A DNA stretch of 64,000 nt from Antedon mediterranea (taxonomy: Eukaryota; Echinodermata; Crinoidea; Comatulida; Antedonidae): NCBI RefSeq assembly GCF_964355755.1, contig NC_092670.1, forward strand, positions 7,680,201 through 7,744,200, written 5' to 3'. The notes beneath the pieces are model-generated. The model was not told where the DNA came from, did not search any database, and saw nothing but the letters and a program-made list of their open reading frames with translations. Each line of letters starts with the position of its first letter. Within the stretch, counting starts at the first letter, position 1. Of this stretch, positions 7,601 to 55,239 are shown piece after piece. Made by a program: the position numbers and the translations under genes.

Positions 7601-8560
7601 AACAGTATTCCTATTTTTTCCGCCGTTTGGTTATTCATAGGCCTATTCTGGCTAAAGAGACCCGCTCTAGACCCACCCCGTGGTATTCCACTCATAAACA
7701 TTATTTGCATCGGCGCTTGTTTAACATTGGCCAAATACTAAAGAACCTTTATCCATGGTCCTAAAAGTTAAAAAAGGACTACTGCTTTTGTAGAATCTGG
7801 ACACTTATTTGGTTTATGGCAACGTTTTAGTGAGCGAATTGCACGAAGGAATTCATATTAGAAATGGGGGGAGGGGGGTTGTTGGCAAAGTTGACGTTTA
7901 ATGTTCACCTTCACAATTCACAAATCCTACTCCTACCTATCAACACATTACAACAACATAATGTAAACACGACGGGGGCCCAATCGATTGTTTATTATTA
8001 TTTGATACAATCATTACTATAATACAAAAGTAGTTATTTTGTTCTTGTGAAACCAGGCTAGGCCTAAAGCTATCTTGGGCTTTTCTTTCAGGCTCTTTGC
8101 ATCTTTTAATTAAATCATTTGAATATTAGTCTGTTTGATAAATTGTGAAATAAAACGACAAATGAATGAATGAATGTAGGCCTAAATTTAAACCTTACCT
8201 CCTCTTTAGGCCTGCTGTTATCCACCTGTTGATTGGGAATTCATACACCTCATCTCTTACATTGTCTCGGACGATAATCCACTCTACACACCAGTTATTG
8301 TTACCAATACCAATTCGACGATCTCGCCACAGTTCAATTTTATCGATTACACCAAAGTCCTTCAACGATATTGGATACATATCCTGATTTCCCTGTTCGA
8401 AATCATCATGAAATCGTATGTCCAGCTTATAGTCTTTTGATCGTTTTCCGTTTGTGTTGATTAAGGCGATATATATGTTAGCGTCCGTACCCGCTCCATT
8501 TCTGTCGGCTGTTTTCACAAGAACTTGGTAGTCACCCTGTTTCGACCCTCGATTCCCCAT
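1669..8560 (-). CDS. PLAT-domain lipoxygenase, N-terminal two thirds
   Basis: Iron lipoxygenase, which inserts O2 into polyunsaturated fatty acids. Nine minus-strand exons keep one frame: 8560-8199, 7554-7431, 7217-7173, 6582-6457, 5485-5388, 4728-4611, 3129-3034, 2532-2318 and 1928-1669, giving about 481 residues. Most donors are GTAAG-type; the third exon uses GTTAGT. Residues 10-118 form a PLAT/LH2 beta-barrel. The catalytic domain then shows LPKDEAF, FGNLVMNGCNPNVI, LIPIAIQL and WVLAK. The two iron-ligand histidines are His349 and His354 in HEACTH, with a conserved His at 359, followed by YYYREDGLKVWDAI. The first ATG opens MGNRGSK, a match to the N-myristoylation consensus and unusual for this family. 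The remaining iron ligands and C-terminal carboxylate are missing because the gene runs off the left edge. Positional and stereo-specificity cannot be assigned. A 20-bp minisatellite and MITEs lie in its introns. Confidence 0.92.
2058..2184. mobile_element. short MITE with AAGCTCTGTCTACAC termini
   Basis: The terminal inverted repeats AAGCTCTGTCTACAC and GTGTAGACAGAGCTT flank a 127-bp unit containing GATATGCCCAAATATGGTAG. It lies in a lipoxygenase intron (between exons 1928-1669 and 2532-2318). A second, internally expanded copy is at 50483-50672. Confidence 0.75.
4002..4570. repeat. 20-bp minisatellite in a lipoxygenase intron
   Basis: About 28 head-to-tail copies of a 20-bp unit close to TTACCGCGGGTAGAACCAAC. 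Variants are clustered: GAATAGAACC at the left, CGAGTACAACC next, GGGTACAACGAA in the middle, GGGTAGAACC to the right. This pattern suggests local homogenisation. Two adjacent copies near 4441-4480 carry a one-base deletion. The array ends about 40 bp from the donor of the 4728-4611 exon. Confidence 0.97.
6663..6847. mobile_element. MITE of the GCTTGGTTCCCACTAG family, copy 1
   Basis: The unit has inverted termini (TTAAGCTTGGTTCCCAC at the left, a degenerate TAGTGAGAACCA at the right) and internal inverted CCAATCACAAGCGA blocks. It lies in a lipoxygenase intron. Related copies occur at 39128, 47116, 48215, 52744, 60903 and 63035. Confidence 0.8.
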
Positions 8561-9235
8561 TACAAATCACAAATATAATTCACACAATTGGTCCACGGAT
8601 ACACTTCAGCTGTTATGGCAAAAAGAACAGAATGCAATGAATTTAGCTACGTGATCATGCTTGAATGAACAAGGTGATCCGTAATAGCGCCAGTTAAACT
8701 TTTATGACGTCATAGATAAAGCATTCTGCTCACTGATTGGGTAATAATTCATACTATTGTAAATCTTATCGGGTTAATAATACAGTTGGATTAGAGAGGA
8801 ATTACACCACTCTTCCTGGTTTGAATCACGGGTACCACTCCTATAATTGGCAATCAACTATTCCGAAGAAATTGTTTTTACCAGTACTGTAGCACATTGC
8901 GGTAAAATCTTGATATAGTATATTATATGCCAGATAAAAATATTAATTTGCATTCGTTTTCTTTCAATTTTATGTTTATAACTATAAACTATTTATTTAT
9001 CTTTAGCGGAAATATTTCATAACTTAATTTGCGTATAAGGCATGGTATCATAAAAGGTGAGGAGCGACACGCCTCCAAATATCTACGCATGCGCACAATG
9101 AACTAACATGCAAATCGAAAGCTCCCCCTCCAATATAATCATATAAAAATAACAGAATTCTCTCGAACAATCTTCACATTATTATATCATATCATAAATT
9201 GTTGTTTAAAAACGTCCAGTGCCCAACCTGTAGCT
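8561..9235. other. intergenic, lipoxygenase upstream side
   Basis: This stretch lies upstream of the lipoxygenase start codon. It should contain the 5' UTR and promoter, but I see no clear TATA box or initiator that I would defend. Confidence 0.4.
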
Positions 9236-13745: not shown

Positions 13746-16301
13746 TCAATCTGTCTCTCCTGTGTGTATTCTCAAATGTCTTTTCAAATTCCCACTTTGA
13801 TTAAATTTCTTACCACAATGTTCACATTCATATGGTGTCTCTCTTGTGTGTGTTCTCAAATGTTTTTTCAAATTCCCATTACAATAAAATTTCTTCCCAC
13901 AATATTCACATTCATATGGTAAATCTCGGTGTATTTTCAAATGTCTTTTCAAAACTCTACTTTGTTTAAATTTCTTTCCACAATTTTCACATTCATATGG
14001 TGTCTCGTGTGTGTGTGTTTTCAGATGTGACTTCAACTCTCCATTTTGTTTAAATTTATCTCCACAATGTTCACATTCAAATGGTTTCTCTCCTTTATGT
14101 ATTCTTAAATGTGCTTGTAAATTACTAATCTGGTTAAATTTCTTTTTACAATGTTCACATTCATATGGTGTCTCTCCTGTGTGTATTCTTAAATGTTTTT
14201 TCAAATCCCCACTTTGTTTAAATTTCTTACCACAATGTTCACATTCATATGGTGTCTCTCCTGTGTGTATTCTTAAATGTATTTTAAAACTTCCACTATG
14301 TTTAAATTTCTTTCCACAATGTTCACATTCATATGGTGTCTCTCTTGTGTGTGTTCTCAAATGTTTTTTCAAATTCCCATTACAATAAAATTTTTTCCCA
14401 CAATATTCACATTCATATGGTAAATCTCGGTGTATTTTCAAATGTCTTTTCAAAACTCTACTTTGTTTAAATTTCTTTCCACAATTTTCACATTCATATG
14501 GTGTCTCGTGTGTGTGTGTTTTCAGATGGGACTTCAACTCTCCATTTTGTTTAAATTTATCTCCACAATGTTCACATTCATATGGTGTCTCTCCTGTGTG
14601 TATTCTTAAATGTTTTTTCAAATCTCCACTTTGTTTAAATTTCTTACCACAATGTTCACATTCATATGGTGTCTCTCCTGTGTGTATTCTTAAATGTATT
14701 TTAAAACTTCCACTATGTTTAAATTTTTTTCCACAATTTTCACATTCATATGGTGTCTCTCCTGTGTGTATTCTTAAATGTATTTTAAAACTCCCACTTT
14801 GTTTAAATTTCTTACCACAATGTTCACATTCATATGGTGTCTCGTTTGTGTGTGTTTTCAGATGTGATTTTAACCCTCCATTTTCTTTAAATTTCTTACC
14901 ACAATGTTCACATTCAAATGGTGTCTCTCCTGTGTGTATTTTCAAATGTGATTTCAAATTCCCATTCCATCTAAATTTCTTCCCACAGTATTGACAATCA
15001 AATGTTTTAAAATCTCTGGCTATGTGTATTTTCAAATGCCTTTTCAAAATTCTACTTTGTTTAAATTCTTTTCCACAATGTTCACATTCATATGGTGTCT
15101 CGTTTGTGTGTGTTTTCAGATGTGACTTTAACTCCCCATTGTGTTTAAATTTATTTCCACAATGTTCACATTCATATGGTTTCTCTCCTGTATGTATTCT
15201 TAAATGTGCTTGTAAATTACTAATCTGGTTAAATTTCTTTTTACAATGTTCACATTCATATGGTGTCTCCCCTGTGTGTATTCTCAAATGTCGATTCAAA
15301 TTGTCCTTGCGTCTGAATTTTTTTCCACAATGTTCACACATATATGGTGTCTCACCTGTGTGTATTTTCAAATGTGTTTGTAAATTACTAATCTGGTTAA
15401 ATTTCTTCCTACAATGTTCACATTCATAATCATATGGCCGTGTCTCTCTTGTGTGCATTATCAAATGTCTTTCAAATATTTTACTTTCTTTGAATTTCTT
15501 CCCACAATGTTCACATTCATATGGTGTCTCTCCTGTATGTATTCTCAAATGTCTTTTCAAATTCCCACTTTGTTTAAATTTCTTTCCACAAGGTTTACAT
15601 TCAAATAGCGTCTCTCCTGTATGTATTCTCAAATGAATTTTCAAACTCCCACTTTGTTTAAATTTCTTCCCACATTGTTCACATTCATATGGTGTCTTTT
15701 TTGTGTGTAATCTTAAATGTTTGTTCAAATTGTCATTCTGTTTAAATTTCTTCCCACAATGTTCACATTCATATGATGTCTCTTCTGAGACAGTGTGTGT
15801 TATTCTGCTCCAGTGTGCTTTCAACTCTTCAATATGTTTAAATTTCGCACCACCACTAGGCCTAGGCCTAAGCCTATGTCCACATTTAGTTGTAGATTCC
15901 TCTCTGCACACGCTCAGAGTCAAATGTCTTTTCAAATCCCAACTGCGTTTAAATGTCTTTCCACAATTTTTACATTCGCATGTTGTTTCTTCTTTCTCTA
16001 ACCCTAGGCCTAATTCGCGGTCTTCAAACTTAAAATTATCTTCGTATAGGCCCGAGGACGAGACTATGTCTTGGCCTAGATCAGGCCCTCGGCCTAGGCC
16101 AAGTACTCCGAGTATGGCTTGGCCTAGTGTATCGCGATCGGATGTCAGTGTATCTTGACTTTGGCAATTTAGATTAATATCATTATAGCTTTCGTCTTTC
16201 AACTCTTCTTTCGTCCATGATGGTGTATGATGTATTCCTAAATGCACCTTCAAATCACTGAACTCAAATTTATCTCCACAGTGTTCACATTTATATTTCA
16301 T
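13746..16301 (-). CDS. poly-C2H2 zinc-finger protein (851 aa)
   Basis: Single-exon gene, a probable sequence-specific DNA-binding nuclear protein. I place the start at the ATG at 16301 (MKYKCEHCGDKF). The same frame stays open further upstream, but its only start-like codon there is a TTG. One N-terminal finger (spacing one residue short) is followed by about 80 acidic or low-complexity residues, a C2HC finger, and a degenerate finger. An uninterrupted tandem of 24 canonical fingers then runs to the stop, ending HTGETD. The usual linker is TGETPYEC rather than the vertebrate TGEKPY. No KRAB, BTB, SCAN or ZAD domain is visible. Fingers 13-17 and 18-23 are near-identical blocks offset by 501 bp, showing recent internal duplication. 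Finger 20 is the extra one. The target DNA is unknown. A further 5' exon cannot be excluded. Confidence 0.93.
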   Translation of the reverse strand: MKYKCEHCGDKFEFSDLKVHLGIHHTPSWTKEELKDESYNDINLNCQSQDTLTSDRDTLGQAILGVLGLGRGPDLGQDIVSSSGLYEDNFKFEDRELGLGLEKEETTCECKNCGKTFKRSWDLKRHLTLSVCREESTTKCGHRLRPRPSGGAKFKHIEELKAHWSRITHTVSEETSYECEHCGKKFKQNDNLNKHLRLHTKKTPYECEQCGKKFKQSGSLKIHLRIHTGETLFECKPCGKKFKQSGNLKRHLRIHTGETPYECEHCGKKFKESKIFERHLIMHTRETRPYDYECEHCRKKFNQISNLQTHLKIHTGETPYMCEHCGKKFRRKDNLNRHLRIHTGETPYECEHCKKKFNQISNLQAHLRIHTGEKPYECEHCGNKFKHNGELKSHLKTHTNETPYECEHCGKEFKQSRILKRHLKIHIARDFKTFDCQYCGKKFRWNGNLKSHLKIHTGETPFECEHCGKKFKENGGLKSHLKTHTNETPYECEHCGKKFKQSGSFKIHLRIHTGETPYECENCGKKFKHSGSFKIHLRIHTGETPYECEHCGKKFKQSGDLKKHLRIHTGETPYECEHCGDKFKQNGELKSHLKTHTHETPYECENCGKKFKQSRVLKRHLKIHRDLPYECEYCGKKFYCNGNLKKHLRTHTRETPYECEHCGKKFKHSGSFKIHLRIHTGETPYECEHCGKKFKQSGDLKKHLRIHTGETPYECEHCKKKFNQISNLQAHLRIHKGEKPFECEHCGDKFKQNGELKSHLKTHTHETPYECENCGKKFKQSRVLKRHLKIHRDLPYECEYCGKKFYCNGNLKKHLRTHTRETPYECEHCGKKFNQSGNLKRHLRIHTGETD

Positions 16302-16849
16302 GATGATACATTTATATGTGCACACTAGGCTAGGCACTGCATTGAGCACCTCCACCACCACAATTCGCAATCGTAACAACCGTGTGGAGGCCGGCCAACG
16401 ATAGTGTGTAGCTAGCTAGTTAGGCCTACACACGTGTTCGGCCTACACTATTATTTCTATGGAGCGCCATGCACGCATTATTTGAAAAGTATCATGGAAA
16501 GTGTGTTGGTACGGTTGAATGGTTGAATTATGGACATGATGCGATGTGGAGTACTGTTTTTAATTTTAATCAAATGAGATCGCTGTATTTATTCGAATAA
16601 ACGCCCCGTTTATTGTGCCAAAATAAAAAAATATCTTTTGATATTGATATTGTTTTGATATTAAATTCGATAATTAAAGCCTTTTGAACGTTATACATTT
16701 TCAAAACAAAAGGCTCAACTCCATCAAACATTTGATCTCAAAATATTAAGTTGTAATTGTTTTTATTGTTTATTCAATGCAGCTTATTTTTAATTGGTGA
16801 CGTATCTCATTATTGTTTTGTTTTGTTTTATTTTGACTACTTAGTTTTG

Positions 16850-37795: not shown

Positions 37796-38459
37796 TCACA
37801 CTTTGACCTAAAACCATTTGGATGTATGGCTTTAACCCGAAGATCAAAATGGATCACACACTTTGACCTAAAACCATTTGGATGTATGGCTTTAACCCGA
37901 ACATCAAAATGGATCACACACTTTGACCTAAAACCATTTGGATGTATGGCTTTAACCCGAACATCAAAATGGATCACACACTTTGACCTAAAACCATTTG
38001 GATGTATGGCTTTAACCCGAACATCAAAATGGATCACACACTTTGACCTAAAACCATTTGGATGTATGGCTTTAACCCGAACATCAAAATGGATCACACA
38101 CTTTGACCTAAAACCATTTGGATGTATGACTTTAACCCGAACATCAAAATGGATCACACACTTTGACCTAAAACCATTTGGATGTATGACTTTAACCCGA
38201 ACATCAAAATGGATCACACACTTTGACCTAAAACCATTTTTGGATGTATGACTTTAACCCGAAGATCAAAATGGATCATACACTTTGACCTAAAACCATT
38301 TGGATGTATGGCTTTAACCCGAACATCAAAATGGATCACACACTTTGACCTAAAACCATTTGGATGTATGGCTTTAACCCGAACATCAAAATGGATCACA
38401 CACTTTGACCTAAAACCATTTGGATGTATGGCTTTAACCCGAACATCAAAATGGATCAG
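37796..38459. repeat. 60-bp satellite-like tandem array, 11 copies
   Basis: Head-to-tail copies of a 60-bp unit containing CACTTTGACCTAAAACCATT, then TTAACCCGAACATCAAAATG. Copies are almost identical. Copies one and eight share AGATC instead of ACATC. Copy eight also has a 2-base insertion (CCATTTTTGG). Because 60 is a multiple of 3 and the unit lacks stops in a frame on each strand, long spurious open frames appear on both strands. It ends about 410 bp downstream of the neurotrophin-like stop codon. Confidence 0.98.
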
Positions 38460-38867: not shown

Positions 38868-41363
38868 TTAATTCCTCGACGAGCCCACACAGCAGTATAC
38901 CACCACGTATGTCTGTTCTATGTTTCCGGTTGTAAGGTTGATGACGTATGCAAGATGGAGTCTTTCTGCTTCGTCACAAGCTGCATTTACAACACGGCTG
39001 ATCTGTGATTGACAGGTCTCTTCCATGAACCACTGATAGGTGTCGTCTTCTTGAAGCTTTGGGAAAACAATGTTAAACGAAACAATTACCATTATTTTAA
39101 ATGACTACTTACTAAATATGTTACCTTTTAAGCTTGGTTCCCACTAGGACGCAACGCAAGGACGTAGACGCAACGCAAGCGAGTTAAACAATCACACGCG
39201 ACTGTTCGAATAATCCATCGCTTGAGATTGGTCAAACCACTTTGCGTTGCGTTACATCCTTGCGTCGCGTCCTAGTGGGAACCAAACTTAAGGCTACGGT
39301 CACACGTTAGTAAGTTGATCCAGCGTTCACATAGGCCGAAGTTCCCAGTAATAAGTTCCCAGTAATAATTGTACAGTTTTCTTAATGTAGGCCTGAGCCA
39401 AATGAATACTATGTATTCTACTAAGTCCAAAAAAAAAACCGTAACATAAAGTTTAAATGTTTACACGATTACGTTTCAGTAACAGTACATTAAAACCATT
39501 TTGGCAGACCGAATATATTTCCCGGGGTAAGCCTATAGTTTTTGAACATTAGTGCATATACACTTGCTTGATTACCAATATGTAATCCCGGATTTAGGAG
39601 ACATATTACATTTTTAATTTACCTGAATGACTTGAACTAGTGTTCCATTTGAGTCAATTGTTATGAAGACATTATTCCAGCTGTAGACTGGTTCGCAAAC
39701 CCTGTATGAACCATCACGTCTTCGTCGTGAATCTGACGTGTTACTGACGGCTCCGCCACGTATCTCTGGTAAAGAGTCTTCTTTCATGAAAGCTCCTGAT
39801 AGATATGCCTTTACTTCGATTCTCTGTCTTTTTGACAGCTTTACAACTGGTCGTTTTGCATTCACCTTTTTCAAAACTCTGTGATTCCTTTCCAAAACTT
39901 TAATCTTTCTCTCGTGCTTTTTCTGTAAATAAAAACATTAAAACAAAGGATTGTTTTTATATTATTTTGTAACAATATAAATATATAAGATTTGCTATTT
40001 TTGTCCTGTTGCTAAGCTCATATGTTATTATATTGCAGAGGCTCATCGAGACAAAGGCTGTGCCTTGTGAGGAGCCTCTGGTGGGTGAAATATTGAATAA
40101 AAAAACAATATAGAATATTGTATTTAATTAATAGTTACTTAAACACTTGTTGTTGAAGCAGTTCGACTGTTTCTGGTATCCGTATATTTTTTTTGTATTA
40201 CATTTTATTGATTTTTTTATCATAATTTAAATTCACATTGGGAACATAACTACACTATTACTCCTAACAATTTTAATCACTTTTGACATTTTTTTTGCCA
40301 TTTTATAAAAAAAAAAAAATTAAATGGAGGAAAAAATGATTACTGAAATATTGTTATATTGTTTTATTGTAATATGTGTATTGATATTTATTTTAATCTT
40401 ATAGGCCCTATAAATATCCTGTTTAATATTTTACTACACAGAGCAATTTTATTCAAAATTTCATTATGTATATTTTACAATTTAATACAGAGTAGGTCGG
40501 TCCCCACGAAAGGCAATAATATACAAATAATGAATGTTTATGAGTGCAATGGTATTTGTACCATTACACGAATACAAAACATTCATTATTTGTTTTATAT
40601 AACATCTAAATAACAAACAAAAATGTTTCAAAAAGTACTATTTAACGATCGTTGAATAGTGCGTACTATTGCACGCCATGTGACCCACATTCGTCCAATC
40701 AAATGACAGGAATTTATATAGGTGTTATATAATTCAGGTTAAAACACATCTCGCACTGGACGTGATTAACTTGACATCTAACAAAAATGTTTTGGGTAGT
40801 TGTATAGATGGAAGATGTCAACACAAAATGTATTTTACAAAATAGTGATTGTAAAGTAGAAAGCTATTGAAAACATATTTTTTTCATTAAAAACGATCGT
40901 TAATTATTACACCTTCTGTAAAATTAACATTTATTAGTAAATGTATTACCAAAGTTGACTTTTGTTCAGTGTCCAGTGGTGTAATAGCGTTAACCTTACA
41001 CCTCCTCCTGTTATTTGGGTCTATAATGATATCAATATCTTCAATATCTTCTTCGTCTATAGATGTAACATTACCATCTTCTGTAATGTCCTCTATCAAC
41101 AGTTCTGCTTCGTCCGTGCTGATTTCATCTTCTGTCGAAATCTCCTCTATTTCAATAATTGTCACCGCTGGCGATGTTCTTTCTGTCGTCATCGCATCCT
41201 CCCCACGAGTTACATTTCTCCGTCTATTTCTTGCTCGTTGTCTATTCTGAGCTTGCCGCTCATCTCTATGTAGATTTAGATCTTCCTCGTTTTGTCGAAT
41301 GCATGTGTAAGTTAGGTCAACACAGACAACTATGATAACTAGACATATAGCAGTAACTTTCAT
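38868..41363 (-). CDS. secreted neurotrophin-like (NGF/Spätzle-type) precursor
   Basis: Three coding exons in phase 0: 41363-40950, 39922-39623 and 39056-38868, giving 300 aa. Residues 1-20 are a hydrophobic signal peptide. Residues 21-203 form a pro-region, first basic, then a long Asp/Glu/Ile-rich stretch. RRRR at 204-207 is a furin site, releasing a 93-residue chain. That chain opens GSYRVCEPVYSW, like the NGF start FSVCDSVSVW, and continues to YQWFMEETC, like QYFFETKC. Cysteines are 214, 253, 265, 293 and 294. Spacing 265-293 (27 residues between) equals that from Cys80 to Cys108 of NGF. The third NGF cysteine is absent, the loop after 253 is shortened to 11 residues, and the final CxC is CC. 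N-glycosylation sequons are at 199, 230 and 278. A likely 5' UTR exon precedes an acceptor at 41389-41390. Frameshift alternative: see findings. Confidence 0.8.
39128..39292. mobile_element. MITE of the GCTTGGTTCCCACTAG family, copy 2
   Basis: The best-preserved copy: TTAAGCTTGGTTCCCACTAG at the left and CTAGTGGGAACCAAACTTAA at the right. TTAA at both ends could be a piggyBac-style target site. It lies in the second intron of the neurotrophin-like gene. Confidence 0.88.
40521..40737. mobile_element. hairpin MITE, centre-deleted copy
   Basis: Reverse-complement match to 11634-11946, ending at GACAGGAATTTATATAGGTG. The palindromic core present in the other copy (about 86 bp) is missing: GGTACAAAT joins directly to ACCATTGCACTC. 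It lies in the first intron of the neurotrophin-like gene. Confidence 0.88.
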
Positions 41364-53661: not shown

Positions 53662-54660
53662 TCACACCGCGTCGTTAGTCGAGTCTTCTTCGCCCTCTAC
53701 ACCCCGTCGGCAATTTGCAGCCGTGCGTTTAATTTGACGATTACTTAACATCACCACTATCGGATTTACGAATGCCAAACTGTACGCAAGAAGTGTGGCA
53801 ACGTGTCGATAATTTGAAAGCAGTAATGACGTCGATATGACTTTGAGATTGAGCAACAAGAAGAAAAGCTGATCTTGACCCCAAAAAAACACAAATAGTA
53901 ATGACAATATAAAGAAACTAATTATATCATTTGATATTGACGAACATCTGTCAAATCGTGGGTATTGCTGTGATAGAATGACATCAATAGCATACGTATT
54001 GCTTCTTTTAATTTTATAGCGAATATGACAGTACACCATCACGTGGAAGAAAGTTGGTACGGCGTATAAAATGACAAAGATGAAAATACTAAATGCCTGA
54101 AATTGGTTAATCGTCACCCACTTAACAGTACATTCGTCATTTTCAGTTGCTGAAACTACTAATATTCCGGAAAAGTTTATGAAAATTGCTATTATCCATA
54201 TACACAAAGTAACGAGTCTACTGAGATTGTGATTTCTTTCGATGTGTTTTCGATGACACCTTGGATGTACCACGTGCACATAACGATCTAGAGTTATGAA
54301 AAGCTGTGAAAGTATTCCGGCGATGTTACCAATCCAAAACAACATCGGATAAAACACAAGTAAACAGTAGATGGAGCCCATAGTATCATCCGGTACGTCA
54401 CTCACTGCAGGAAATGGAATGATACCGACAGACGAGACCAAGTTAGAAAATGTCAAACTTTCTAGGAGACAATATACAGATGTCGGAACTCCGTCTGTCA
54501 CGCGACGTCTCAGGAACAAGACCAGTAAAAGGAGGTTGAATGTGATACCACAGACTGCCAGGCATATCCTAAAGAGGACTACTAAATCTGGTTCGCTGTA
54601 TTTTTTTCCCGAGTTTAGAAATACCTCCTCATTGTACCTGTCATCAATCAAGTGCTCCAT
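53662..54660 (-). CDS. orphan rhodopsin-class G-protein-coupled receptor (332 aa)
   Basis: Intronless 332-residue seven-transmembrane receptor, plasma membrane, ligand unknown. The ATG at 54660 gives a 25-residue extracellular N-terminus. Approximate helices: 26-51, 60-85, 95-125, 146-170, 186-211, 245-272 and 283-308. Class A landmarks: Asn42 in TM1, Cys99 at the top of TM3 paired with Cys177 in loop 2, LDRYVHVVHP (DRY 125-127), Pro202 in TM5, Trp260 in TM6 and NP at 299-300 in TM7. Departures from consensus: the TM2 acidic residue of LAxAD is replaced (FSNLVSS), TM6 reads FFWGQDQ without the CWxP proline, and NPxxY is NPIVV. These changes suggest a rapidly evolving, lineage-expanded receptor like those reported for echinoderms. 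The tail is short and acidic (EGEEDSTNDAV). A poly(A) signal lies just downstream. Confidence 0.9.
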   Translation of the reverse strand: MEHLIDDRYNEEVFLNSGKKYSEPDLVVLFRICLAVCGITFNLLLLVLFLRRRVTDGVPTSVYCLLESLTFSNLVSSVGIIPFPAVSDVPDDTMGSIYCLLVFYPMLFWIGNIAGILSQLFITLDRYVHVVHPRCHRKHIERNHNLSRLVTLCIWIIAIFINFSGILVVSATENDECTVKWVTINQFQAFSIFIFVILYAVPTFFHVMVYCHIRYKIKRSNTYAIDVILSQQYPRFDRCSSISNDIISFFILSLLFVFFWGQDQLFFLLLNLKVISTSLLLSNYRHVATLLAYSLAFVNPIVVMLSNRQIKRTAANCRRGVEGEEDSTNDAV

Positions 54661-55239
54661 TGATAATCTTCAAAGAGAGATTAAGGAGAATCGATCAAAT
54701 GTCTTTAAAGAGTGTTCTACTCAAACACCTTGCGTACATACTAAGTGCATATACATCCTTTATGGTAGACCTTTCTGCTTTCGTACAACAAGATTCCGAA
54801 ACATGATGTAGTATCATAAATATTTATTGAACTGTTTTATTGCACGCGAACTTGCCTTTAAAATTAGTAAAGTTATTGTTATACACAGAAACTATGCTAA
54901 TATCCCTACCAGCAATTTATCAACCGTACTTATAATGTGAATAACAAAAGGATGTTATACTACAATATGATAATTTACTCCAATAACATATTTATTAAGA
55001 AAATACCAATATAGTTTAATGTATTTCTGTATTTTTTACCGTTAAACAAATATCGCTAAAGTTGATTTGAGGCGCTTTTGAGGGGGTTCGCCCACCTTTA
55101 AAAATATATCTTTAAAATCATTATGTATTATGCCTATGTATTGATAACACAGTATTATCCACACAGGGTACGATAGTTTAATGAATAACATAATGAACAC
55201 ACATTAAACTCTTGATTTTTGTAATGGTACTATTTAGTT
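54661..55239. other. GPCR upstream sequence, no feature
   Basis: Should include the GPCR 5' UTR and promoter; no motif stands out. Confidence 0.35.

What the first reader, a model, noticed from the sequence alone, without database searches (positions are those of the whole stretch)
38868..41363. Neurotrophin-like factor with a depleted cystine knot
Seen: the mature chain after RRRR has only five cysteines (214, 253, 265, 293, 294). Known: NGF-family proteins have six, paired 1-4, 2-5 and 3-6, and the 2-5/3-6 pair makes the knot ring. Here cysteine 3 is gone, the loop between cysteines 2 and 4 has 11 residues instead of about 21, and the final CxC is CC. The spacing from the AAC cysteine to CC is exactly that of NGF. 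Inference: a ringless knot with one free cysteine that might form an intermolecular bond, loosely recalling the reduced knot of IL-17. The long acidic pro-region is also unusual.
Basis: partly seen in the sequence, partly recalled or inferred. Interest (0 to 1): 0.8.

Follow-up and report, generated by a model that had tools for sequence, protein, structure and literature searches.

The report
Nerve-growth-factor-like proteins without the knot
This gene belongs to a small family of probably secreted proteins in this animal's genome that are related to nerve-growth-factor and Spaetzle signals but have lost one of the three disulphide bonds of the cystine knot, while some keep an extra cysteine like the one thought to join two Spaetzle chains.

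Summary
A three-exon minus-strand gene (300 aa) ends, after RRRR, in a 93-aa domain with cysteines only at 214, 253, 265, 293 and 294. It is not one damaged neurotrophin. The same genome holds six further genes of the family and one broken copy. All seven share a phase-0 intron at the same place, a conserved glutamine and four invariant cysteines (neurotrophin C1, C2, C4, C5). C6 is absent in 7 of 7, C3 in 6 of 7; the seventh keeps C3 beside a new cysteine. So the 3-6 disulphide, half of the knot ring, appears lost as a pair. The genome also has one six-cysteine neurotrophin and four modelled Spaetzle-like genes with all six knot cysteines. The family aligns with these five from C1 to C5 (hhalign E 1.9e-9; 0 of 200 shuffles as good). 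The window's CC is not a collapsed CxC: C294 is C5, and C293 matches the extra cysteine before C5 of Spaetzle-like proteins. Likely role: a processed, secreted, covalent dimer acting as a ligand. Fold, bonds, receptor and expression were not shown. New variant of a known kind.

The parts
40950..41363 (-). exon 1: signal peptide and acidic pro-region (residues 1-138)
   Evidence: donor GTAATAC; hydrophobic N-terminus
41304..41363 (-). probable signal peptide (residues 1-20; end estimated)
   Evidence: best 11-residue hydropathy 3.7; no dedicated predictor was run
41010..41204 (-). acidic stretch of the pro-region (residues 54-118, 24 D/E, 1 K/R)
39623..39922 (-). exon 2: basic pro-region, processing site, first part of the domain (residues 139-238)
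   Evidence: dN 0.035, dS 0.130 against the broken copy on contig C5
39788..39850 (-). pro-domain motif PVVKLSKRQRIEVKAYLSGAF (residues 163-183), like LTxxQxxxVxxxYGSYF of paralogues
   Evidence: aligned with C11, C6 and C7a by MAFFT; similar stretches in C7b and C11b by eye
39716..39727 (-). RRRR (204-207), furin-type site
39695..39697 (-). Cys214 = neurotrophin C1
39057..39622 (-). phase-0 intron after VQVIQ, same place in 7 of 7 family genes
   Evidence: six genes; C11b
38868..39056 (-). exon 3: rest of the domain and stop (residues 239-300); Q246 is the conserved glutamine
39012..39014 (-). Cys253 = C2
38976..38978 (-). Cys265 = C4
38892..38894 (-). Cys293 = extra cysteine before C5 (also in paralogues C6 and C1b; Ser in the other four)
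   Evidence: register is my reading of the motif
38889..38891 (-). Cys294 = C5; C6 is replaced by Gly296
   Evidence: register is my reading of the motif

Best explanation
The gene encodes a secreted precursor. A signal peptide is removed, a convertase cuts after RRRR, and the 93-residue C-terminal domain folds as a reduced neurotrophin/Spaetzle domain with two intrachain disulphides, 214-265 (C1-C4) and 253-294 (C2-C5). The 3-6 bond, and with it the ring of the knot, was lost in this family. Cys293 sits where some Spaetzle-like proteins have the extra cysteine tied to covalent dimers, so the likely product is a covalent homodimer that acts as an extracellular ligand, in the manner of Spaetzle or a neurotrophin. 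Shown: gene structure by splice sites, family, cysteine pattern, homology to the NGF/Spaetzle group. Inferred: secretion, cleavage, pairing, dimer, ligand role. Receptor (Toll, Trk or other) unknown.
For: Six further genes share the phase-0 intron (7 of 7) and the invariant columns C1, C2, C4, C5, two Gln, Arg and Ala. Six-member profile against 177,635 PDB sequences: 12 hits at E<=10, 11 named NGF and one 'ovulation-inducing factor' (an NGF, recalled), best E 0.0047. hhalign of the seven against 4 Spaetzle-like + 1 neurotrophin of the same genome: Prob 96.3, E 1.9e-9; 0 of 200 shuffles that keep the invariant Cys columns reach it. Six members against the 4 Spaetzle-like alone: E 3.2e-6, 0 of 200. 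Best Pfam hit NGF, Spaetzle or Coagulin in 5 of 7 members, all below cut-off. C-terminal pattern [S/C]-C5-x-[A/G] in 7 of 7 against [S/C]-C5-x-C6 in 4 of 4 Spaetzle-like and 1 of 1 neurotrophin. Exon 2 against the broken C5 copy: 8 silent and 8 replacement codons, dN/dS 0.27. Wilson 2009 (PMC2772990, passages): sea urchin NT2 has a Cys adjacent to the fifth, tied there to covalent dimers.
Against: No member passes a Pfam cut-off, and 2 of 7 have an unrelated best hit (C7a DUF6452, C1b an Ig model). Against the neurotrophin alone the six-member profile gives only Prob 15.4, E 0.0017. PDB hits cover only C1 to C2. The AlphaFold model of the window domain alone is poor (pLDDT 51.7, pTM 0.37) and finds no reliable match. 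Four of seven members lack the extra Cys before C5, so covalent dimers cannot be general; the Pro three to two residues before it in 4 of 4 Spaetzle-like genes is absent in 7 of 7, and Wilson names a Pro (136 in that alignment, not matched by me) with the Cys for the dimer. A furin-type site shortly before the domain is seen in 3 of 7 (window, C7b, C1b). C11b keeps a C3. No transcript data.
Confidence: 0.55

Rival explanations
1. Same superfamily, but Cys293 pairs with Cys253 (NGF spacing) and Cys294 is the free or interchain cysteine.
For: 27 residues lie between C265 and C293, as in NGF (NGF number recalled).
Against: Cys294, not Cys293, is invariant in 7 of 7; 293 is Ser in four members.
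Confidence: 0.12
2. A coagulogen-like monomer: a structural or clotting protein of body fluid rather than a signalling ligand.
For: Member C7b matches Pfam Coagulin, E 2.6e-4, below cut-off. [quoted passage not shown] Four of seven members lack the extra cysteine before C5.
Against: The window member has the extra cysteine and an RRRR site; four other members' hits or its own are to NGF or Spaetzle. No clotting feature was tested.
Confidence: 0.15
3. A decaying neurotrophin pseudogene, or a wrong gene model that misses an exon with the other cysteines.
For: A broken copy exists on contig C5. C11 has a frame change in its pro-region.
Against: Seven genes on four contigs share the cysteine pattern and the intron; window exons are open with GT-AG ends; exon 2 dN/dS 0.27; a canonical neurotrophin exists elsewhere.
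Confidence: 0.06
4. An unrelated small secreted cysteine protein; the NGF and Spaetzle matches are chance.
For: All Pfam scores of the family below cut-off; poor fold model.
Against: Profile-profile E 1.9e-9 over C1-C5, 0 of 200 shuffles; 12 of 12 PDB hits are NGF-type.
Confidence: 0.05

Closest known systems
Spaetzle-like / NT2 proteins of Ambulacraria (sea urchin Sp-NT2, acorn worm NTa and NTb; Wilson 2009, PMC2772990, passages read) and the Spaetzle-like genes of this genome (contigs C4, C2, C6)
   Same: Multi-exon genes, colinear C1-C5 alignment, conserved Gln, extra Cys before C5 in some members
   Different: The four modelled here keep C3 and C6 and have a phase-2 intron between C2 and C3; the window family lacks C6 (and mostly C3) and has a phase-0 intron before C2. 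The published sequences themselves were not compared
Canonical neurotrophins (NGF, BDNF, NT-3; this genome's copy at C2:39933087-39933398)
   Same: C1, C2, C4, C5 and Gln; signal-like start, pro-region and basic cleavage site in the window gene
   Different: Six cysteines and a domain in one open frame in the canonical gene; the window family is split by an intron and lacks C6 and, in 6 of 7, C3
Drosophila Spz6 (Zhu 2008, PMC2586362, passage)
   Different: It has three extra cysteines in unusual places, per that paper; which two are lost was not checked here
IL-17
   Same: Knot-type fold with one disulphide fewer in chordates (PMC4517768, passages)
   Different: No Pfam match of any of the seven members to IL-17 at the thresholds used (E<=10; E<=1)
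Coagulogen
   Same: One family member (C7b) matches it weakly
   Different: The window member shows no match to it

Membership tests
Neurotrophin (NGF) family, strict | six knot cysteines | tested here: not met
   C3 and C6 absent in the window gene
Neurotrophin (NGF) family, strict | Pfam NGF score over the curated cut-off | tested here: not met
   22.8 bits against 27
Neurotrophin (NGF) family, strict | knot-domain Gln conserved in all NTs (PMC2586362, passage) | tested here: met
   Q246; same residue in all 12 aligned sequences: 7 family, 4 Spaetzle-like, 1 NT. That this is the Gln of the paper is inferred
Neurotrophin (NGF) family, strict | signal, pro-region and basic cleavage site before the domain | tested here: met
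   sequence features only
Spaetzle family, strict | Pfam Spaetzle score over the cut-off | tested here: not met
   no match listed for the window; E 0.04, 0.059, 0.028 for C11, C6, C11b, all below cut-off
[quoted passage not shown]
   C293-C294; CC also in 2 other of the 7 members
NT/Spaetzle superfamily, broad | colinear similarity C1-C5 beyond the cysteines | tested here: met
   hhalign E 1.9e-9, 0 of 200 Cys-fixed shuffles
NT/Spaetzle superfamily, broad | NGF-type fold | tested here: inconclusive
   pLDDT 51.7, no reliable match
NT/Spaetzle superfamily, broad | functional dimer | not testable with these tools
   needs protein
IL-17 | Pfam IL-17 match | tested here: not met
   no IL-17 hit for 7 of 7 members; remote similarity can be missed

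The most novel reading that the evidence does not exclude
A cytokine family, of at least seven genes in this animal, dismantled the cystine knot that defines its superfamily. C6 was lost first; one surviving gene (C11b) kept C3 and gave it a new local partner two residues before C4; the others then dropped C3 and shortened the loop. The NGF-type dimer is held without a ring, and in some members by a Spaetzle-type interchain bond instead. The order of loss rests on one gene whose place in the tree is weakly supported (37.5/50).
Probability: 0.35. Interest if true: 0.65.

Novelty: new variant of a known kind. Interest (0 to 1): 0.5.

Why it matters
The knot ring is usually treated as what holds NGF, Spaetzle and related growth factors together. 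A natural family that lost one ring disulphide, beside relatives in the same genome that keep all six knot cysteines and a possible intermediate, gives a ready set for asking what the ring does for folding, stability and receptor choice. It would also add to the neurotrophin and NT2 types that I found described for sea urchin and acorn worm.

Tried and rejected
A single-sequence PDB search with the window domain gave only three unrelated weak hits. Structure: the single-sequence model has six strands but low confidence; Foldseek lists NT-3 at rank 20 with E 1.4, no better than unrelated rows, among the 50 of 277 rows shown, and no neurotrophin or Spaetzle entry is among the 50 entries that VIA-align shows; I draw nothing from either. 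A search for LRRCT_2, a domain I recall from Trk, found nothing, and nothing rang in the control genomes, so it is uninformative. dN/dS between members is saturated for most pairs, and for C11-C7a dN = dS = 0.39 (in that call the window row was cut to exon 2 by a look-up fault, so its rows cover 26 codons). The tree of 12 short sequences is weak inside the family; the split of the seven from Spaetzle-like + NT has 91.7/92. Six-member profile against the neurotrophin alone: Prob 15.4, E 0.0017, though 0 of 100 shuffles reach its score. Pseudogene and IL-17 readings were rejected as told above. Papers: nine searches; in their listings and in the passages of four papers that I opened (PMC2772990, PMC2586362, PMC4517768, PMC9427763; of the first also part 1 of section 7) I saw no description of this four/five-cysteine family. 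I did not open the other listed papers; most subscription papers and all preprints are outside the library.

Full report
Gene. On the minus strand, exons 41363-40950, 39922-39623 and 39056-38868 (stop included) encode 300 aa; introns are GT-AG. The N-terminus is hydrophobic. The pro-region has an acidic part (54-118: 24 D/E, 1 K/R) and a basic part (119-207: 27 K/R, 9 D/E), then RRRR and a 93-aa domain. Cysteines in the domain are 214, 253, 265, 293 and 294.

Genome context. The window is part of contig C1 of a 354-Mb assembly. Pfam NGF finds one match in it, a six-cysteine neurotrophin on C2 (E 1.2e-23), whose best solved relative is NT-3 (E 1.8e-21). Pfam Spaetzle finds six matches up to E 1, none over the cut-off exon by exon, but two spliced genes of the C4 cluster pass it (39.8 and 41.5 bits against 27, with approximate joints). 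Spliced at GT-AG sites, the 4 Spaetzle-like genes that I modelled have seven or eight cysteines, C3 and C6 among them, and a phase-2 intron between C2 and C3. HYR domains are abundant (150 matches from the 150 scored of 1417 candidates) and the arthropod cuticle domain Chitin_bind_4 gave none (nothing rang in its controls either), which fits, but does not prove, an echinoderm or other deuterostome.

Family. Searches with the window domain and then with members give six further genes: C11 (15.14 Mb), C6 (22.93 Mb), C7a (21.38 Mb), C7b (29.50 Mb), C1b (36.47 Mb) and C11b (17.66 Mb), so seven genes on four contigs, and a broken copy on a fifth, C5. All seven have the same phase-0 intron (six, C11b). 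Invariant columns in the seven are C1, C2, C4, C5, two Gln, Arg and Ala. C11b is the weakest member by sequence (E 0.0158 from C7b; 0.19 in reverse) and is held by intron and motif. Hydrophobic N-termini were seen in the 6 members checked (C11b not checked). C11 changes frame between its hydrophobic start and its pro-region, so it may be an allele, an assembly error or a pseudogene. The searches score only the best candidates, so seven is a lower bound.

Broken copy. Against the window, the C5 copy has two 4-base insertions and a 6-base deletion in exon 1, and the donor after exon 2 reads GA; no exon 3 was found in the 19 kb taken, about 8 kb of it downstream, nor by the genome search. Exon 2 differs from the window by 8 silent and 8 replacement codons (dN 0.035, dS 0.130), a sign of constraint on at least one lineage for some time.

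Homology. A profile of six members against all PDB sequences gives 12 hits at E<=10, all NGF-type (11 named NGF, one ovulation-inducing factor), best 0.0047, over C1 to C2. hhalign of the seven against 4 Spaetzle-like + 1 NT gives Prob 96.3, E 1.9e-9; the score 51.9 compares with at most 24.5 in 200 shuffles that keep the invariant cysteine columns. Six members against the 4 Spaetzle-like alone: Prob 88.0, E 3.2e-6; against the NT alone: Prob 15.4, E 0.0017. Pfam best hits: window NGF 1e-4; C11, C6, C11b Spaetzle 0.04, 0.059, 0.028; C7b Coagulin 2.6e-4; C7a and C1b unrelated. None passes its cut-off. The tree separates the seven from Spaetzle-like + NT (91.7/92) but does not say which of the two is closer.

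The cysteines. At the C-terminus the Spaetzle-like and NT proteins read [S/C]-C5-x-C6 (SCCVC, SCCVC, SSCVC, GSCSC, SSCDC). The family reads [S/C]-C5-x-[A/G] (CCVG, SCSA, CCAA, SCAA, SCKA, CCTA, SCHA). MAFFT and hhalign place these blocks one residue apart from this for some sequences; the register given here is my reading of the motif. C6 is thus absent in 7 of 7. C3 lies 4-5 residues after C2 in the 4 Spaetzle-like genes and is absent in 6 of 7; C11b has a cysteine there and another two before C4. Loss of both is what loss of one disulphide would leave. The remaining set, C1-C4 and C2-C5, has no ring. Members with CC (window, C6, C1b) have one cysteine over.

Mechanism. Wilson 2009 (PMC2772990; [quoted passage not shown] C293 falls on the place of the extra Cys in the SCCVC genes of this genome; the Pro before it in 4 of 4 Spaetzle-like genes is missing in 7 of 7 family members. 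I expect a convertase-cut, secreted, covalent homodimer. This is inference. Single-sequence folding was too poor to help.

Known parallels. [quoted passage not shown] Chordate IL-17 has serines for one cysteine pair (PMC4517768, passages). So reduced knots exist; what I did not find described, in nine searches, is a multi-gene family of a probable deuterostome with C6 lost in all members and C3 in all but one.

Noticed in passing
37797-38458: 60-bp minisatellite, 11 copies, 98% matches, just downstream of the gene's 3' end.
   Followed up: no
39128-39291: Inverted repeat inside intron 2: 39-nt arms, 92% complementary, 86 nt apart, MITE-like.
   Followed up: no
53665-54669: 335-aa open frame of a rhodopsin-type receptor, 7tm_1 E 1.2e-18.
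   Followed up: no
13749-16415: 889-aa open frame of C2H2 zinc fingers with an 84-bp repeat on the DNA.
   Followed up: no
8198-8566: PLAT/LH2 domain frame, E 4.1e-22.
   Followed up: no
L012/L008 (C11 and C7a members): This pair of the family has dN = dS = 0.39 over 88 codons: fast change or relaxed constraint; C11 also changes frame in its pro-region.
   Followed up: partly
L041 (C11:17662600-17665400): Member C11b with C3 and a new cysteine two before C4, no C6: possible intermediate.
   Followed up: partly
L032-L033 (C4:32443000-32460000): Cluster of Spaetzle-like genes (at least three last exons, ending SCCSC or SCCVC) in a genome that does not look like an arthropod's.
   Followed up: partly
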